A DNA stretch of 28,550 nucleotides from a virus, in IMG/VR virus record IMGVR_UViG_3300046836_000375, positions 1-28,550 of that record. One strand, 5' to 3'. A program made the translations under genes and the position numbers. Positions 1 through 5,009 of the stretch are shown here, one piece after another. Position 1 is the stretch's first letter. Each line of letters begins with the position of its first letter. The notes beneath the pieces are model-generated. The model was not told where the DNA came from, did not search any database, and was given only the letters and a program-made list of their open reading frames with translations.

Positions 1-72
1 CGCGGCGCCGCGCGAGACGTTAGTGAGATTGATCGGCGCCGGCTCGGTCATACTGGCGTTTTTCTCGGTCAT
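1..72 (-). CDS. Early phage protein, N-terminal fragment (cut by left edge)
   Basis: The first 24 codons of a leftward gene are visible and the frame is still open at base 1. The ATG (70-72) follows a strong Shine-Dalgarno, GCAGGGAG, about ten bases upstream, and sits just after the stop of the MazG-like remnant. The visible protein begins MTEKNASMTEP and continues PINLTNVSRGAA. The second part resembles, from memory, the N-terminus of a phage early-gene family of unknown function that starts with an INLT..GRGAA-type stretch. Its 5' end duplicates the 5' end of the 23-residue ORF at 1463-1534, including the ribosome binding site. No function can be assigned from this fragment. Confidence 0.6.
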   Translation of the reverse strand, partial: MTEKNASMTEPAPINLTNVSRGAA

Positions 73-91
73 CGAAATAAATCTCCCTGCT
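44..91. repeat. Duplicated gene-start segment, copy A
   Basis: These 48 bp match 1506-1553 in the same orientation at 46 of 48 positions; the differences are at 48 and 73. On the minus strand the segment carries a Shine-Dalgarno (GCAGGGAG), the spacer, an ATG and codons for MTEKNASM. The two copies are 1462 bp apart and both begin leftward reading frames. Confidence 0.85.
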
Positions 92-279
92 AGATGCGTT
101 CAGGAAACCCGTACTCTTCTGACTTCTGATTGAAAACCTCGGCGATTATTTGCGCCGGATCTGTAATCCCGACTCGCGCCATAACCAACAGCCCATAGAT
201 GATGACGTCGGCAGTCTCTTTTGCTACCGCTCGCCGCGCGCTCTCAATATCTGTAAAATGCCGCTCCCGCCCGACTCAC
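90..279 (-). pseudogene. MazG-like pyrophosphohydrolase remnant, frameshifted
   Basis: A minus-strand frame open from 275 to the TAG at 90-92 encodes about 60 residues whose middle, KETADVIIYGLLVMARVGI, looks like the ExxD helix of MazG-type nucleotide pyrophosphohydrolases, which hydrolyse NTPs or dNTPs to monophosphates. No ATG, GTG or TTG opens this frame at a sensible place. A GTG at 277-279 with a GGGGG Shine-Dalgarno five bases upstream opens the neighbouring frame, runs eleven codons (MSRAGAAFYRY) and stops at TGA. A +1 shift at that TGA would join the two into a protein of about 63 residues. The first metal-binding EExxE helix of MazG is missing in either case. It may be a decayed gene, a sequencing error or a real +1 shift. 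The family call rests on one helix and is uncertain. Confidence 0.4.
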
Positions 280-295
280 CTTTTCCCCCGTTGAT

Positions 296-763
296 CTAGC
301 CCAATTTCGGCAATTCGATGCGAACTTGAGAGAGCGCCGCCCGATCCAGATTTTTCTTGTAGAGCAATCTCCCTTGTTCGGTGGCGATGCGAATGGCGCC
401 GAATACCGCGCCGGCAAACAACACCTGCTTTTGTTCGTCGAGACCGAGAGACTCGAAAAACTGTTCCTGTAAATTGCGCTGTGTCCGGTCGCCGCGTTTG
501 ACGGCGCGATCGATGCGCATGATTTTTGTGGACAAAATCGGCGCCACCCATTCGGCATCAGCCAGCACGATCCCATAATTACGTCGGCTCGTGTATTCGA
601 TGTTTCGGCGCCTGAGCGCCGCTCTCAATAGTTGCTTTCCTCTGGCATCCATCCTGATCCTGGTTTGATGTTCGATGGCGCTATAGCTGAGCGACGCCCC
701 GGCATTCTGTTCGGCTATAAACTTGCCGAGCACGATCGATTCCTCTAAAAGTTCCCTCTTCAT
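296..763 (-). CDS. Early phage protein, winged-helix-like N-terminus
   Basis: This encodes 155 residues. The ATG at 761-763 was chosen over upstream in-frame codons because a near-perfect AAGGAGAT lies seven to eight bases before it. I do not recognise the whole protein. Residues about 20-75 (SYSAIEHQTRIRMDARGKQ, then LLRAALRRRNIEYTSRRNYG) have the pattern of a winged helix-turn-helix: a helix, an Arg-rich second helix and a hairpin ending in a glycine. I remember this kind of domain in phage early proteins, so DNA binding is an inference. The C-terminal half is helical and charged with no motif I know. The gene follows the GGCNN pentamer tract directly and belongs to the leftward early operon that starts at 2775. 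Confidence 0.75.
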   Translation of the reverse strand: MKRELLEESIVLGKFIAEQNAGASLSYSAIEHQTRIRMDARGKQLLRAALRRRNIEYTSRRNYGIVLADAEWVAPILSTKIMRIDRAVKRGDRTQRNLQEQFFESLGLDEQKQVLFAGAVFGAIRIATEQGRLLYKKNLDRAALSQVRIELPKLG

Positions 764-776
764 TTCAAATATCTCC

Positions 777-901
777 TTGTCTTGCCGCGCCCCGCCATGC
801 CTAGCCGGGCCGAGCACTGCCGAGCCGAGCCGCGTCTAGCCCTGCCCTGTCTAGCCGAGCCCTGTCACGCTCCGCTGTACCGCGCCGCGCCATGTCATGC
901 C
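777..901 (-). repeat. Degenerate GGCNN pentamer array, 25 units
   Basis: Read on the minus strand, bases 901 down to 777 split without remainder into 25 pentamers of form GGCNN. Sixteen are exact GGC plus two free bases. The other nine each have one change in the first three bases: five GACNN, two AGCNN, one GGTNN and one TGCNN. The last two bases vary freely (AT, GC, TC, TA, AG, GG, AA and others). The array fills the space between the stop codon at 909-911, with 7 bp left over, and the Shine-Dalgarno at 771-776 of the next gene, which it abuts. It is transcribed inside the operon but lies outside both reading frames. It has no spacer structure and is not CRISPR. Function unknown. Confidence 0.9.
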
Positions 902-908
902 CCGCGTC

Positions 909-1466
909 TTACTTCCACGTGGTTGACACCACGCGAAACCTGCCATAGTAACCGTTGTTGCGCGGCCGAAACCGGCCAATGCCGATAAAGTTCCCCGCCT
1001 CGCGCAAATGGTTTTCGAATACTTCGGGCGTAATGGTGTCGTCTAGAATGTAGAAAGTGACCATGCCGCGCCAGGAATTGATGCGCGGAAAACACTTTGT
1101 GACCCTCTTGCCAGACCCGCGGCGACCGTCGGAAGGCACGAACAACCATTCGCCGACAACGTCGTCTTTGCTGACCTCGAGCTCTAACGGATCGGTTACC
1201 AAAATTCCGGCTTCGAAATGTTTGGTATAAGTCGTCTTACCTTTGCCAGGAATTTGTTGGCTGAGAAACTTCGCCACCTCGGACAAACAATTTTTGAACG
1301 CCATCGGAGGAATAAAAATCTTCCCTTTATCGTTGCCGTGCACCCGTTCGCGCCAGGTACGTCGTTCGTAGTCGTTGGGGTTTTCCTTGTCCAATTTCGG
1401 AGTATCGTGAAACTTCGATTGACTATAGGGACTGACTGACTCCAACATGGCATCGCATTTCCTCAC
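909..1466 (-). CDS. Early phage protein, possible Cas7/RAMP-like fold
   Basis: This encodes 185 residues from a GTG at 1464-1466. That start overlaps the stop of the upstream 23-residue ORF as GTGA and has GGGGG six bases upstream. An ATG at 1448 is the alternative but would remove the residues before LESVSPYSQSK. I recognise the protein as a conserved phage early-region family of unknown function. Near residues 48-68 it has GKIFIPPMAFKNCL and near 162-177 GIGRFRPRNNGYYGRF. The first resembles the strand-helix of RAMP/Cas7 proteins (IPGSSLKG-like), and the second a Gly/Arg-rich loop with a following strand. This comparison is mine and unproven; no catalytic residues are apparent. Strong charge and many lysines and arginines would suit nucleic-acid binding. 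A GGCNN array follows its stop codon. Confidence 0.8.
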   Translation of the reverse strand: MRKCDAMLESVSPYSQSKFHDTPKLDKENPNDYERRTWRERVHGNDKGKIFIPPMAFKNCLSEVAKFLSQQIPGKGKTTYTKHFEAGILVTDPLELEVSKDDVVGEWLFVPSDGRRGSGKRVTKCFPRINSWRGMVTFYILDDTITPEVFENHLREAGNFIGIGRFRPRNNGYYGRFRVVSTTWK

Positions 1467-1534
1467 GCCGCGCCCCCTATCACCCGATCGATGGCCAGGC
1501 CTAATTCGGCCATACTGGCGTTTTTCTCGGTCAT
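1463..1534 (-). CDS. 23-residue coupled small ORF
   Basis: This is a very short frame starting at the ATG 1532-1534. The ATG overlaps the stop of the 65-residue zinc-ribbon gene as ATGA, and its own TGA overlaps the GTG of the next gene. A good GCAGGGAG lies ten bases upstream. The peptide begins MTEKNASMAELGLAIDR and ends in IGGAA. The first eight codons and the ribosome binding site duplicate those of the gene at the left edge of the window. It is either a small peptide, a translational-coupling element, or the stub of a duplicated gene that was later truncated. The 4-nt overlaps on both sides argue that it is translated. Confidence 0.5.
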   Translation of the reverse strand: MTEKNASMAELGLAIDRVIGGAA

Positions 1535-1553
1535 TGAAATAAATCTCCCTGCT
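1506..1553. repeat. Duplicated gene-start segment, copy B
   Basis: This is the second copy of the 48-bp segment at 44-91, same orientation, differing at 1510 and 1535. It contains the Shine-Dalgarno and first codons of the 23-residue ORF. The last codons and the stop of the preceding gene also lie inside it. Confidence 0.85.
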
Positions 1554-1728
1554 TCGGTTGCGGTTGCTTCTCGCACAGGCGGCGCAAGGCCGCTTTACGC
1601 GTACGCTCGGCCAGGCATTCAAGGCATGGCCCGCGGCGCTTGTCGTCGACGCGATGCATGGTTTCCTTGCGGCAAACCTGGCACCATACCGAAACCGAAA
1701 CCGTATTGCTCGTGTAATGATGCGGCAT
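1531..1728 (-). CDS. Small zinc-ribbon protein (65 aa)
   Basis: The ATG at 1726-1728 has AGGGAA upstream and lies 1 nt after the preceding stop. Two CxxC knuckles, WCQVC near residue 16 and PCLEC near residue 35, are about 16 residues apart and fit a treble-clef or zinc-ribbon fold. A basic stretch follows (RTRKAALRRLCEKQPQPKQ). The C-terminal QGDLF is a short motif of the type seen in sliding-clamp-binding or other docking peptides (inference only). Such small zinc proteins are common in phage early operons, where they may bind DNA or a host protein; its target cannot be told. Its stop overlaps the 23-residue ORF. Confidence 0.75.
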   Translation of the reverse strand: MPHHYTSNTVSVSVWCQVCRKETMHRVDDKRRGPCLECLAERTRKAALRRLCEKQPQPKQGDLFQ

Positions 1729-1729
1729 T

Positions 1730-2023
1730 TTATTTCCCTGCGTTTTTGTGAACCTGGCGCGCCAGGTAAGCCCGCCGCCGGCGCGCTCGCTGCTCCTGTT
1801 TTTGTATGGCGAATATCTCGGCCGGCGAGCGGCCCCGCGGCCCAGGCGCCGCGCGCCGCCGGCGCTCGCGCTCGAGCTCGCGAAAATGAGCCGCCAGACA
1901 AGCCGGCCCCGAGCATAACGTGCGCGTCGAGTCGAACCAGTTGCAGGCCTCGCCGTCGGGCAAATGGCAAGGATTCGCCTCGGTACAACGGCAATAACGA
2001 CACACGCCGGCGATAGATTGCAT
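1730..2023 (-). CDS. Phage zinc-finger protein with CxxC...C pattern
   Basis: This encodes 97 residues with an ATG at 2021-2023 after GGGGGC. The N-terminal half holds about seven cysteines: CRYCRCTEANPC, then AC and a pair spaced CSGPAC, with a WFD motif between them. This matches a small phage zinc-finger type I know from early operons, in which cysteines flank a tryptophan-containing loop. The C-terminal half is strongly basic (ERERRRRAAPG, EQRARRRRAY) and probably binds nucleic acid. It sits between two other cysteine-rich genes with almost no gaps, so the three are co-transcribed. The biochemical role is unknown. Confidence 0.8.
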   Translation of the reverse strand: MQSIAGVCRYCRCTEANPCHLPDGEACNWFDSTRTLCSGPACLAAHFRELERERRRRAAPGPRGRSPAEIFAIQKQEQRARRRRAYLARQVHKNAGK

Positions 2024-2031
2024 GGCGCCCC

Positions 2032-2775
2032 CTATTGCGGCCGGACGTACTCAGGCGGCGCCGGCCTGGCCGCCTCTTTCACCACTCCATCGATAAACTC
2101 GCGAATCGCGGCCAGATGCCCGCGATGCAAATTGGAAATATCGAGCGCCAAAAGCGCCCATTGCGGCGTGGCCGCGGCAATCTCAGTAAAGGCGCGCTCG
2201 AGCCCTTCCGTCGGCGCACCGGCGCAAAGATTCACGGCCGCGGCGATACGGCGCGCCTGCTCAAAACTGGCCGGCATCAATTGCCGGTTGCGGTCTATCA
2301 CCGTGCGCCCGTTCGAACCCCCCCAGGCCTCGCCCTCTTCCACTAACGCACCATCCTCGCCAACTAACCACGGTTCCCCGAAATCCTCGAGCGTATTAGG
2401 CGCCCAATCAACAGGCACGGCGCCGGCCGCCGCCGCCGTGGCCGGCGGTTTCCTCGGCGCGTTATCTGTCTCGTAGTCCCACGCGTCGGCGGCATCGAGC
2501 GGCCAGATGGCCGCCAGCGTCTCAATCGATACGCGCCGATAGATTTCCTCCACCGCATGCGCCAGGCCGCCCACCGGGCAACCGGACGCGTGCCCTTGCG
2601 CGCGGCGGCCCTCGTCGAGCTCGGCATCGCAGCAAGAGCAATACAAGAGACTCGCGCCGGCCCGGCAATAGCAGACCCAAAAGAGCACTCTGCGGGCGGC
2701 CAGGAGCAGGCCGACAAAGGCCTCTAATTGGCGCCCGCCGGCGGCGGCATCGGCGATATTTTGAACGTTTCCCAT
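2032..2775 (-). CDS. First gene of leftward early operon, Cys-rich hypothetical protein
   Basis: This encodes 247 residues. The ATG at 2773-2775 has an excellent GGGAGGAA upstream. Near residues 35-66 there is a cluster C-Y-C, then C-S-C-C and a final C in GHASGC, with a possible His ligand, suggesting one zinc site. A central stretch is Ala/Pro-rich (KPPATAAAAGAVP) and looks like a linker. The C-terminal 100 residues are predicted helical (FEQARRIAAAVNLC, HRGHLAAIREFIDGVVKE). I do not recognise a family. It is divergent from int across a 308-bp region, so transcription of the left operon probably begins just upstream of it. Confidence 0.75.
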   Translation of the reverse strand: MGNVQNIADAAAGGRQLEAFVGLLLAARRVLFWVCYCRAGASLLYCSCCDAELDEGRRAQGHASGCPVGGLAHAVEEIYRRVSIETLAAIWPLDAADAWDYETDNAPRKPPATAAAAGAVPVDWAPNTLEDFGEPWLVGEDGALVEEGEAWGGSNGRTVIDRNRQLMPASFEQARRIAAAVNLCAGAPTEGLERAFTEIAAATPQWALLALDISNLHRGHLAAIREFIDGVVKEAARPAPPEYVRPQ

Positions 2776-3083
2776 GCGGCAAATTCCTCCCTGTAGAAAC
2801 CGCTCTTTTACCGCGGCGCCGTTGTAGAGTTTTCGCTCTGTAGTAGAGTTTTAGGTCGGAAAAGGGTGAAAATGAGGCAAAAACAGCAAAACAAGTTAAG
2901 AACAGTTAAAGCCGCAAATGACTGATTTTCCATTAGGTTAACTGATTCTAAAGACCCTCCATAAACCGTGTGCTGGCGTTGTGGCGCCCTTAAATATACC
3001 ATGCCGTAACTTCTTTCAAATAAATAACTTGCAGAAGGCGTTTTGCCTGTTGTAGAGTCGTTGTAGAGTCGCAAGGGGAAAAA
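2776..3083. promoter_or_regulatory. Divergent int/early control region, possible attP
   Basis: This gene-free stretch lies between the leftward early operon and int. Its middle (about 2865-3040) is markedly AT-rich compared with the flanks. GTTGTAGAGT occurs at 2821-2830, 3049-3058 and 3060-3069, and a related GTAGTAGAGT at 2840-2849, all in the same orientation. ACTGATT occurs at 2921 and 2941. A small inverted repeat, AGGC-GTTTT-GCCT, lies near 3036-3048. AT-rich DNA with repeated boxes beside int is typical of attachment sites with integrase arm-binding sites, but promoters for both operons must also lie here. I could not pick convincing -35/-10 pairs. Confidence 0.5.
3049..3070 (+). repeat. 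Tandem 11-bp repeat GTTGTAGAGTC
   Basis: Two perfect, directly adjacent copies of GTTGTAGAGTC lie 13 bp before the integrase ATG, just upstream of its Shine-Dalgarno (AAGGGG). A third copy of the first ten bases lies at 2821-2830. Candidates are an integrase or excisionase arm site, or an operator controlling int. Confidence 0.8.
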
Positions 3084-4484
3084 ATGAAGGATGAAAATTT
3101 TAAAAATTTGAAACATACGGTCGTGCTCATGCGCAGCCTGCGCACCGAAAGCGGTTGGATACGCCGCAAAGTCACCCCCGGCAAAAGTAGAAACTGGGAA
3201 CAGAGAATCGACCACGACCGGAAGCATTTCGGCGCCGATGTACTCGACCTGGGCAGCTACCAGATCCGCCGCTATGAGAACGGCAAAACCCGCTACGAGC
3301 CGGGCGGCGACACCTACACTCAGGCCGTGGCCGTTTACAACCGGCGGATCAACCGGGTCGCACTTCTCAGCGCCGCCAAAACCGCCGGCGTCGAACTGGC
3401 GCCGGAAGAAACGGAAACGGCCGCGCTCCCTGAACAGATGGAAGAATTTTGCAATGCCCGCGCAGCCACCGGCAAACATACCGCCCCGGCCACCCGCGAA
3501 TCGTACCGCCTGGCGCTCAGAGACTTTGTGTCGATCACTCGAGTACGCCGCGCCCGCGACGTAAAGGCGGCGACTCTGGTCGCCTATCTGGCCGGACTCA
3601 GGCGCCTGGGCCTGAATCCCCAGACCATCGCCAGCCGTTACATTTCCGTGGGCGCGATCCTGCGCTATGCGGATAAAAACCTGACCGGCCTGCTGCTCGA
3701 ATATAAGCCGCCTGTGCCCCGGCGCAAAAAGGTCAGCTACAGCGAGGAAGAGCTCGAAGCCTTCCTCACCTTCCTCCGCGGCCGGCCCCGTCAATATGCC
3801 AAGCTGGCTCTGGTCGCCGAAACCTACTTTAAAACCGGACTGAGGAATAAAGAACTGGCCTACCTGACCTGGGACGTGGTGGACCTCAACAAAGGCTTCA
3901 TTCGCAATCTGGACAACCGCGAGCTCAGTGTGCGCACGCCCGGCGGCCGAGTCGAAAAATTCCTCTATCGCACCAAGGCGCGCCGCGACCGTGAAGTTTC
4001 GATTCCGCTCGCCGACGGCCTGCTCGGCCGGCTGCGCGAGTGGCGCGAAAGCCACCCCCGCGACCGCTTCGTTTTCCCTACCCGGAACGGCAACCCGGAT
4101 CACGCTTTCCGCACCAAGATCCGCACCGCCATCTGTCACGCGGGCATGAATTGCCGGGCGTGCGACGTCTGCCTGGTTCCCTGCGGACGATGCCGGCATT
4201 GCCGCTGCAAGAAATGCGACAAATGTAGAAAGCGTCTGAAGTGCAGTCGTCCCCATCATGGCAATCAGCCCTGCACCCGGATCGAGTGCCGTAAATGGAA
4301 AATTCACAACTTCCGTCACTCTTTCATAACTCTGGCCCTGCATGGCGGAATCGACCCCGGCACCGTGAAAGACATTGCCGGGCACGCCGACCTGCGCACC
4401 ACCAATGGCTACTTGAGCACTATCGCGGAAGGCAAAGCCCGCGAAAAAATCAACCAGGTTTTCGCCTCGGCCTTCGGCGATTGA
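3084..4484 (+). CDS. int: Tyrosine integrase with Cys-rich insert
   Basis: This site-specific tyrosine recombinase of 466 residues would integrate and help excise the phage by strand exchange between attP and attB. An AAGGGG precedes the ATG. Residues 1-110 form an N-terminal arm-binding-like part (QIRRYENGKTRYEPGGD); about 115-205 form the core-binding SAM-like domain; 220-460 form the catalytic domain. Catalytic residues seen: R254 in TGLRNKEL, K298 in YRTKARRD, H408 and R411 in HNFRH, H434 in GHADLRTT, and nucleophile Y443 in NGYL. All are present, so the enzyme should be active. Residues 351-402, directly before the HxxR motif, contain 13 cysteines, many as CxxC. Shorter Cys motifs at this place occur, as I recall, in other integrases, but this one is long. 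It faces the excisionase-like gene tail to tail with a 4-bp gap. Confidence 0.95.
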   Translation: MKDENFKNLKHTVVLMRSLRTESGWIRRKVTPGKSRNWEQRIDHDRKHFGADVLDLGSYQIRRYENGKTRYEPGGDTYTQAVAVYNRRINRVALLSAAKTAGVELAPEETETAALPEQMEEFCNARAATGKHTAPATRESYRLALRDFVSITRVRRARDVKAATLVAYLAGLRRLGLNPQTIASRYISVGAILRYADKNLTGLLLEYKPPVPRRKKVSYSEEELEAFLTFLRGRPRQYAKLALVAETYFKTGLRNKELAYLTWDVVDLNKGFIRNLDNRELSVRTPGGRVEKFLYRTKARRDREVSIPLADGLLGRLREWRESHPRDRFVFPTRNGNPDHAFRTKIRTAICHAGMNCRACDVCLVPCGRCRHCRCKKCDKCRKRLKCSRPHHGNQPCTRIECRKWKIHNFRHSFITLALHGGIDPGTVKDIAGHADLRTTNGYLSTIAEGKAREKINQVFASAFGD

Positions 4485-4488
4485 TGGC

Positions 4489-4761
4489 TCACGCCGCATC
4501 GCTCACCTTCCTCTCGCCGGCGGCCCTCCCCCGCTGGCGCACCGTTCGGGGAGGCTTGACCACGATCATCGAATGCGCGCGCCACCAGGCCGCGGCCTGA
4601 TGCGGGTCGACCCAGTGAGTCCCCCCAATTTTGGTCGTCGGCAGGCCGTCATCCCTCACCCATCGGAATGCGGTCATATAGCAAACGCCCATAACCTCGG
4701 CGAATTTTGGCAATTTCATGGCGCCGCGGTGCGACTCCAGTTGTTTGGCAATATCGAGCAT
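4489..4761 (-). CDS. xis: Excisionase-like HTH DNA-binding protein
   Basis: This encodes 90 residues from the ATG at 4759-4761, with GGTGAT upstream. An in-frame extension to 5016 exists but reads as Cys/Arg-rich noise and overlaps the previous gene. Residues about 15-65 (KLPKFAEVMGVCYMTAFRW, VRDDGLPTTKIGG, HWVDPHQAAAWW) form the MerR/excisionase-type winged helix-turn-helix: recognition helix, a wing with KIGGTHW, then a final helix. Such proteins bend attachment-site DNA and bias integrase toward excision, or act as small regulators. The C-terminal tail is basic. It is convergent with int, so the two cannot share a transcript in the usual xis-int way. The 248 bp upstream (4762-5009) contain CCTCTGCAGG twice (4918 and 4979) and no gene I can support. 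Confidence 0.8.
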   Translation of the reverse strand: MLDIAKQLESHRGAMKLPKFAEVMGVCYMTAFRWVRDDGLPTTKIGGTHWVDPHQAAAWWRAHSMIVVKPPRTVRQRGRAAGERKVSDAA

Positions 4762-5009
4762 CAAATCACCATGCGCAAAGGAAACGTGTTTTTGAACAAA
4801 ACAGCTAAAGCAAGATAATGAAGAAAAACAATCGAAAAGCAAACTCCATTTTTTCCGCTCGTAATCCCTACATTCGACGCGCCCATGGATGTTTTTCAAC
4901 AGGCCGACTCGCCTTTTCCTCTGCAGGCTGCGCGGCCTCGCTCCCCCATGCCAACACGAAGAAACCAGGCCGGCGCGCCCTCTGCAGGCCACGATTAGCC
5001 GGCAGATTT

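What the first reader, a model, noticed from the sequence alone, without database searches (positions are those of the whole stretch)
777..901. 125-bp intergenic tract built only of GGCNN pentamers
On the minus strand, 25 pentamers lie end to end without a break. Sixteen are exact GGCNN and the other nine have a single change within the GGC. The two N positions vary widely. The tract fills the gap between a stop codon (7 bp spare) and the next Shine-Dalgarno. A coding repeat would use a period of 3 or 6; a period of 5 in a transcribed gap suggests selection on RNA or DNA form, or slippage expansion followed by drift held to one change per unit. It could be a binding array for a protein, a translation spacer, an origin-like element or an unstructured RNA leader. 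I have seen similar GGCNN runs mentioned for other phages only vaguely and cannot verify it.
Basis: seen in the sequence. Interest (0 to 1): 0.8.

Follow-up and report, generated by a model that had tools for sequence, protein, structure and literature searches.

The report
Phage guide-RNA array (VIPR system)
The strange run of GGCNN five-letter repeats is very probably the gene for a guide RNA of VIPR, a CRISPR-like phage system first described in 2026, and here it sits in a small cassette that a close relative of this phage lacks.

Summary
In detail: 777-901 on the minus strand is 25 unbroken pentamers (16 exact GGC, 66/75 matches; shuffles reach at most 45). It is a guide-RNA (vrRNA) array of a VIPR system (preprint PMC13142463), not a spacer, origin or slippage remnant. 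The gene upstream (909-1466, start GTG 1466) encodes a Vipr protein: its profile hits PDB 36pp, 'SUSP1 Vipr', and the family's model folds like CRISPR RAMP proteins. The gene downstream (296-763) belongs to the accessory (vap) family of related loci. Of 81 loci (80 relatives found by protein, plus the window), 71 carry such arrays, nearly always read with the genes, ending in NNYAANNYAAGG; the window ends GGCAAGACAAGG. A close relative (L123) lacks the whole 1.4-kb cassette, which is flanked here by a 48-bp direct repeat. Decoding the NN pairs by the published one-base-skip rule found no convincing target in IMG/VR. Beyond the preprint's main text: within this one Vipr clade the fixed triplet differs between loci (GGC, CGC, GAC, CTC, GTC, GTT), while position 3 stays a pyrimidine; the window's is RRY (24/25). 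The preprint's unread supplement ('a related consensus') may cover this. Expression, RNA processing and targeting are inferred.

The parts
777..901 (-). vrRNA repeat tract: 25 pentamers, consensus GGCNN (RRYNN in 24 of 25); NN = AT AT GC GC AC GG GT AG TC TA AG AG TA GC TC TC AG TC CC TA AT GG GC AA AA
   Evidence: same element beside vipr genes in 71 of 81 loci of the clade
775..786 (-). conserved vrRNA 3' end motif NNYAANNYAAGG (here GGCAAGACAAGG); its last letters also form the Shine-Dalgarno of the next gene
   Evidence: motif 211 times on the gene strand against 10 on the other in 80 related loci plus the window segment; 186 against 0 preceded by an array
909..1466 (-). vipr gene, 185 aa, GTG start; RAMP-fold guide-RNA-binding protein
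   Evidence: phrog_4652; PDB 36pp SUSP1 Vipr; family fold; start aligned with L008 Vipr
296..763 (-). vap gene (VIPR accessory protein), 155 aa, predicted winged-helix DNA-binding domain plus long helices
   Evidence: Member of a 60-protein family downstream of vipr in related loci, HMM E 2.9e-27; model pLDDT 89; weak winged-helix matches
773..778 (-). AAGGAG Shine-Dalgarno of vap
   Evidence: Sequence
1463..1534 (-). 23-codon leader ORF that starts in the left direct repeat; its TGA overlaps the vipr GTG (GTGA), suggesting coupled translation
   Evidence: Sequence; inference
1506..1553 (-). left copy of the 48-bp direct repeat flanking the cassette
   Evidence: 46 of 48 identical to 44-91; L123 has one copy
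44..91 (-). right copy of the direct repeat; start region of the conserved phage gene that follows
92..1505 (-). inserted VIPR cassette, absent from relative L123; G+C 54.6% against 58.8% for the rest

Best explanation
The tract is the guide part of a vrRNA, the guide RNA of a phage-borne VIPR system. It is transcribed with the neighbouring genes. Copies of the adjacent Vipr protein (a small RAMP protein of the CRISPR Cas7-like fold) would line up along it, holding the fixed triplets and presenting the two variable bases of each unit. Read with one base skipped per unit, the variable pairs would spell a gapped DNA target, probably in a competing phage or satellite, whose genes the complex would silence, with the DNA-binding Vap protein helping. 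Shown here: array, Vipr, Vap, conserved 3' end, orientation, cassette. Inferred from the preprint: transcription, complex, skip rule, silencing.
For: Array real. Of 158 proteins flanking GGCNN arrays in viral contigs chosen by DNA pattern (plus six genome contigs and the window), 49 fall into one family that includes the window's gene; all 49 match phrog_4652, and their profile hits PDB 36pp 'SUSP1 Vipr protein' at 7.5e-41. A profile of the window and four relatives alone hits it at 3.3e-11. AlphaFold model of a family member pLDDT 95.5; its 38 PDB matches at E<=0.001 are type III or VII CRISPR RAMP subunits as far as their descriptions tell. The converse search, by Vipr protein, gave 80 loci; an unsupervised period-5 scan finds arrays in 71 of 81 with the window, 0 of 790 shuffled stretches. 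Over 143 non-redundant arrays positions 1-3 are conserved and 4-5 near flat. In 5342 GGC-selected units the commonest deviation is C to T at position 3, as GGY predicts. Vap family of 60 proteins. Preprint text.
Against: No target found in IMG/VR by the one-base-skip rule. The tract has 25 units against 9-16 in the preprint's main examples, and only 17 of 25 triplets are strict GGY. No room for a separate structured tail before vap; the predicted fold is not special (z -1.33). No expression data. The window Vipr sequence alone matches 36pp only weakly (E 0.67); the link needs a profile.
Confidence: 0.92

Rival explanations
1. A decaying vrRNA: the cassette is a VIPR system, but this guide array has drifted and no longer works well.
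For: 9 of 25 units off GGC, 25 units instead of 9-16, no target found.
Against: All 25 third positions are pyrimidines and all 25 second positions purines; the 3' end motif is intact; vipr and vap are open over full length; near relatives such as L288 also have loose triplets.
Confidence: 0.25
2. A pentanucleotide microsatellite made by slippage and then mutated.
For: In the genome collection most exact GGCNN hits are such microsatellites.
Against: Microsatellites keep one or few NN; here NN takes 10 values in 25 units, while the triplet is held. Arrays track the Vipr family and the gene strand.
Confidence: 0.02
3. A translational spacer or leader controlling the downstream gene.
For: The tract runs into the Shine-Dalgarno of vap.
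Against: In relatives arrays also lie upstream of vipr, several in a row, or before genes on the other strand, which a spacer for one gene does not explain. A double role of the 3' end remains possible.
Confidence: 0.04

Closest known systems
VIPR system of Escherichia phage SUSP1 (PMC13142463; PDB 36pp)
   Same: Vipr-family protein, pentamer array with hypervariable NN next to vipr, small locus with an accessory gene, phage-borne
   Different: 25 units rather than 9-16, RRY rather than strict GGY, one array between vipr and vap, 3' end motif NNYAANNYAAGG merging with a Shine-Dalgarno rather than a separate structured tail; Vap sequence not compared with SUSP1 vap1
Class 1 CRISPR-Cas effector complexes (Cas7/Csm3 backbone)
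   Same: RAMP fold of the family; a protein backbone on a guide RNA with periodic unpaired positions
   Different: no spacer-repeat array and no cas operon in the cassette, guide split into dinucleotides; same fold but not a CRISPR system
TIGR-Tas (PMC12045711; abstract only)
   Same: phage-borne tandem guide arrays that target DNA
   Different: different protein family and array architecture (not compared by computation; resemblance of kind only)

Membership tests
VIPR | Vipr protein, a RAMP homologue | tested here: met
   Profile hits 36pp at 3.3e-11 (A3) and 7.5e-41 (A1); phrog_4652; RAMP fold of a family member
VIPR | vrRNA of tandem fixed triplet plus hypervariable NN pentamers in the intergenic region of the locus | tested here: met
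   71 of 81 loci of the clade
VIPR | fixed triplet is GGY 'or a related consensus' | tested here: inconclusive
   Consensus GGC, but strict GGY in 17 of 25 units; RRY in 24 of 25. Supplementary fig. S17 could not be read
VIPR (type II examples) | 9-16 repeats per vrRNA, as given for the preprint's SUSP1 analysis | tested here: not met
   25 units. Taken here as a trait of the examples, not of the whole family: a minority of arrays in other loci also exceed 16. I do not file it as type II
VIPR | accessory vap gene, DNA-binding in several types | tested here: met
   Family of 60 proteins downstream of vipr; winged-helix-like model and weak DNA-binding matches
VIPR | vrRNA expressed and bound by Vipr | not testable with these tools
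   needs RNA sequencing and pull-down
VIPR | DNA target read by the one-base-skip rule | tested here: inconclusive
   No extended match in viral contigs; held loci too small to tell skip lengths apart
CRISPR-Cas | repeat-spacer array and cas operon | tested here: not met
   Neither was found around the cassette: no family hits to Cas proteins among the ten window proteins scanned, and the array is of another architecture

The most novel reading that the evidence does not exclude
In the window's Vipr clade the fixed triplet is not universal. Each locus keeps its own (GGC 46, CGC 10, GAC 7, CTC 3, GTC 2, GTT 1, GGT 1, AGC 1), the triplet has switched many times, and Vipr residues may follow it: residue 126 is F in 46 of 46 loci with base 1 = G and Y in 8 of 11 with base 1 = C; residue 165, in the glycine-rich loop, is R in 45 of 45 loci with base 2 = G. 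That would be a protein-RNA pairing code giving mutually independent VIPR systems.
Probability: 0.45. Interest if true: 0.7.

Novelty: new member of a known kind. Interest (0 to 1): 0.58.

Why it matters
VIPR is known, in the library searched, from one 2026 preprint that proposes it as older than CRISPR. This window adds a system caught as an insertion, with the empty site in a near relative. The related loci show that the fixed triplet changes between close relatives, so which Vipr residues read it becomes directly testable. It also identifies phrog_4652 (unknown function) as the Vipr family.

Tried and rejected
Chance: rejected. Microsatellite slippage: rejected by NN diversity and the link to Vipr. 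Protein-coding repeat: the tract lies between genes in sense orientation in most clear cases; first counts of 'inside an ORF' I attribute to GC-rich false ORFs made by the arrays, though this was not tested separately. Known RNA family: none in Rfam. BLAST of an array against phages found nothing. Literature on GGCNN: nothing relevant; the preprint was reached through PDB 36pp. The search for related loci with the 155-aa ORF found nothing, though its family later appeared downstream of vipr. Target search: four 8-unit blocks. The first (units 18-25) included the 3' end motif, which is probably not guide, so units 16-23 were searched afterwards. Best candidate L365/L367 matches 13 of 25 pairs but outside the searched block only in scattered units: not accepted. 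Reversed sequence as a null for arrays was not independent and was replaced by the opposite strand and by shuffles.

Full report
OBSERVATION. The window is a 28,550-base linear virus record of IMG/VR. At 777-901 on the minus strand 25 pentamers follow one another without a break: 16 exact GGCNN, 9 with one change, 66 of 75 triplet letters matched. The best of 5000 dinucleotide shuffles of the tract reached 45, the best of 200 whole-window shuffles 43. No other place in the window exceeds 43 at period 5. The changes are ordered: position 1 is a purine in 24 of 25, position 2 in 25 of 25, position 3 a pyrimidine in 25 of 25.

HOW IT WAS IDENTIFIED. Nearly all are arrays with varied NN, often several in a row. 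In the genome collection most hits are plain microsatellites with few NN types. The viral arrays lie between genes with GGC on the coding strand; in 124 of 160 cases the upstream ORF runs the same way, usually ending within a few tens of bases. This gene calling masked the arrays, so it assumes that they are not coding. Clustering the 158 flanking proteins gave one family of 49 that includes the window's upstream gene. All 49 match phrog_4652, of unknown function. The family profile hit one solved structure strongly: PDB 36pp, 'SUSP1 Vipr protein', E 7.5e-41. That led to preprint PMC13142463, which describes VIPR: a RAMP protein, Vipr, with vrRNAs of alternating GGY and NN that recognise double-stranded DNA through the NN pairs with one base skipped, and that act against competing phages.

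THE VIPR GENE. The ORF 909-2003 is a fusion of frames: its first half matches the relative L123, its second half is Vipr. The real start is probably GTG 1466, which aligns with the start of L008's Vipr and overlaps the stop of a 23-codon leader ORF (GTGA, read). The 185-aa product is 68% and 64% identical to the Vipr of L073 and L008. A profile of five sequences of this subgroup alone hits 36pp at 3.3e-11. A model of one family member (pLDDT 95.5) matches CRISPR RAMP subunits of the Csm/Cmr and type VII kind. The window's own Vipr was not modelled.

CONVERSE TEST. To avoid choosing by array, 80 viral loci were fetched by the Vipr protein (58-73% identical). An unsupervised period-5 scan found arrays beside vipr in 71 of 81 loci, window included; 0 of 790 shuffled stretches reached the threshold. 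A 3' end motif NNYAANNYAAGG occurs 211 times on the gene strand and 10 times on the other; 186 against 0 are preceded by an array (overlapping motif positions are counted separately, and the window segment is included). The array test there scored a pyrimidine at position 3, so that count alone is partly circular. In 143 non-redundant arrays, taken at fixed distance from the motif without selection on the array, position 3 is a pyrimidine in 89%, positions 1 and 2 are G in 68% and 61%, and positions 4 and 5 are near flat. The window ends GGCAAGACAAGG, so its motif fits; the last letters are part of the Shine-Dalgarno of the next gene.

THE ACCESSORY GENE. The 155-aa ORF 296-763 belongs to a family of 60 proteins encoded downstream of vipr in these loci (HMM E 2.9e-27; up to 63% identity). 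Its model (pLDDT 89) has a winged-helix-like start and two long helices. [quoted passage not shown]

THE CASSETTE. Relative L123 matches window 1506-4786 at 82.6% and window 1-91 at 98.9%, with nothing between: it is the empty site. In the window a 48-bp direct repeat (46 of 48) stands at both ends, 1506-1553 and 44-91; L123 has one copy. The 1.4-kb insert is poorer in G+C (54.6% against 58.8%). It carries the end of the leader ORF, vipr, vrRNA, vap and, before the right repeat, a 56-aa stretch with a weak MazG-like match (E 0.011, below the curated cut-off). How the insertion arose is not known; that L123 is the ancestral state rather than a deletion is an inference from its single repeat copy.

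TRIPLET SWITCHING. Within this clade the fixed triplet differs by locus: GGC 46, CGC 10, GAC 7, CTC 3, GTC 2, GTT 1, GGT 1, AGC 1; examples can be read. On a tree of 66 different Vipr proteins the labels (first two bases, with 'no array' as a state) need 22 changes (shuffled mean 27.5): partly clustered, yet switched repeatedly. Residue 126 is F in 46 of 46 loci with base 1 = G and Y in 8 of 11 with base 1 = C; residue 165 is R in 45 of 45 loci with base 2 = G and not R in 5 of 12 others. Only two or three supported independent pairs exist and many columns were scanned, so this is a lead, not a result. The preprint's main text allows 'a related consensus' (fig. S17), which I could not read, so priority is open.

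TARGET. By the one-base-skip rule the guide reads ATxATxGCxGCxACxGGxGTxAGxTCxTAxAGxAGxTAxGCxTCxTCxAGxTCxCCxTAxATxGGxGCx. Scans of IMG/VR for four 8-unit blocks gave 43 stretches; none extends convincingly beyond the block. A test of skip lengths on the 2.7 Mb held was uninformative. The target may lie outside the collection, carry mismatches in every block, or the guide may be shorter or drifted.

JUDGEMENT. That this is a VIPR vrRNA locus is nearly certain from the joint presence of array, Vipr, Vap and 3' motif. That it works as an RNA-guided silencer is inferred from the preprint. It is a new member of a kind reported only in 2026. The switching triplet is the part most likely to be new.

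Noticed in passing
window 909-2003: The long ORF is a false fusion; the first half belongs to the region shared with L123, the second half is Vipr.
   Followed up: yes
window 90-260, minus strand: 56-aa stretch with a weak MazG-like match (PF12643, E 0.011) just inside the right direct repeat; perhaps a truncated gene carried with the cassette.
   Followed up: partly
L282 (OR003939.1, phage DSL-LC04) 1986-2929: Vipr homologue deposited as 'helix-turn-helix transcriptional regulator', with GGYNN repeats in the gap upstream.
   Followed up: partly
L104:1655-2140, L121:3458-3898 and 14 more: A second family (mostly about 150-170 aa, motif SPLHxxFEWDDxxAA) flanks GGCNN arrays in 16 contigs; no Pfam match. 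Possibly another VIPR-linked gene.
   Followed up: partly
L009 6311-7010 (+), L036 1404-1978 (coordinates on the reverse strand): Very long GGCNN arrays, 140 and 115 pentamers in one phase, far beyond one guide.
   Followed up: no
L332, L339, L347 downstream of vipr: Series of 6 to 9 vrRNA-like arrays in a row beside one vipr gene.
   Followed up: no
L343, L344, L346, L348, L351 upstream of vipr: CGC-type arrays with perfect triplets; a GGY search misses them on the gene strand and in some cases reports them on the other strand, so GGY-based surveys would miss or misorient them.
   Followed up: partly
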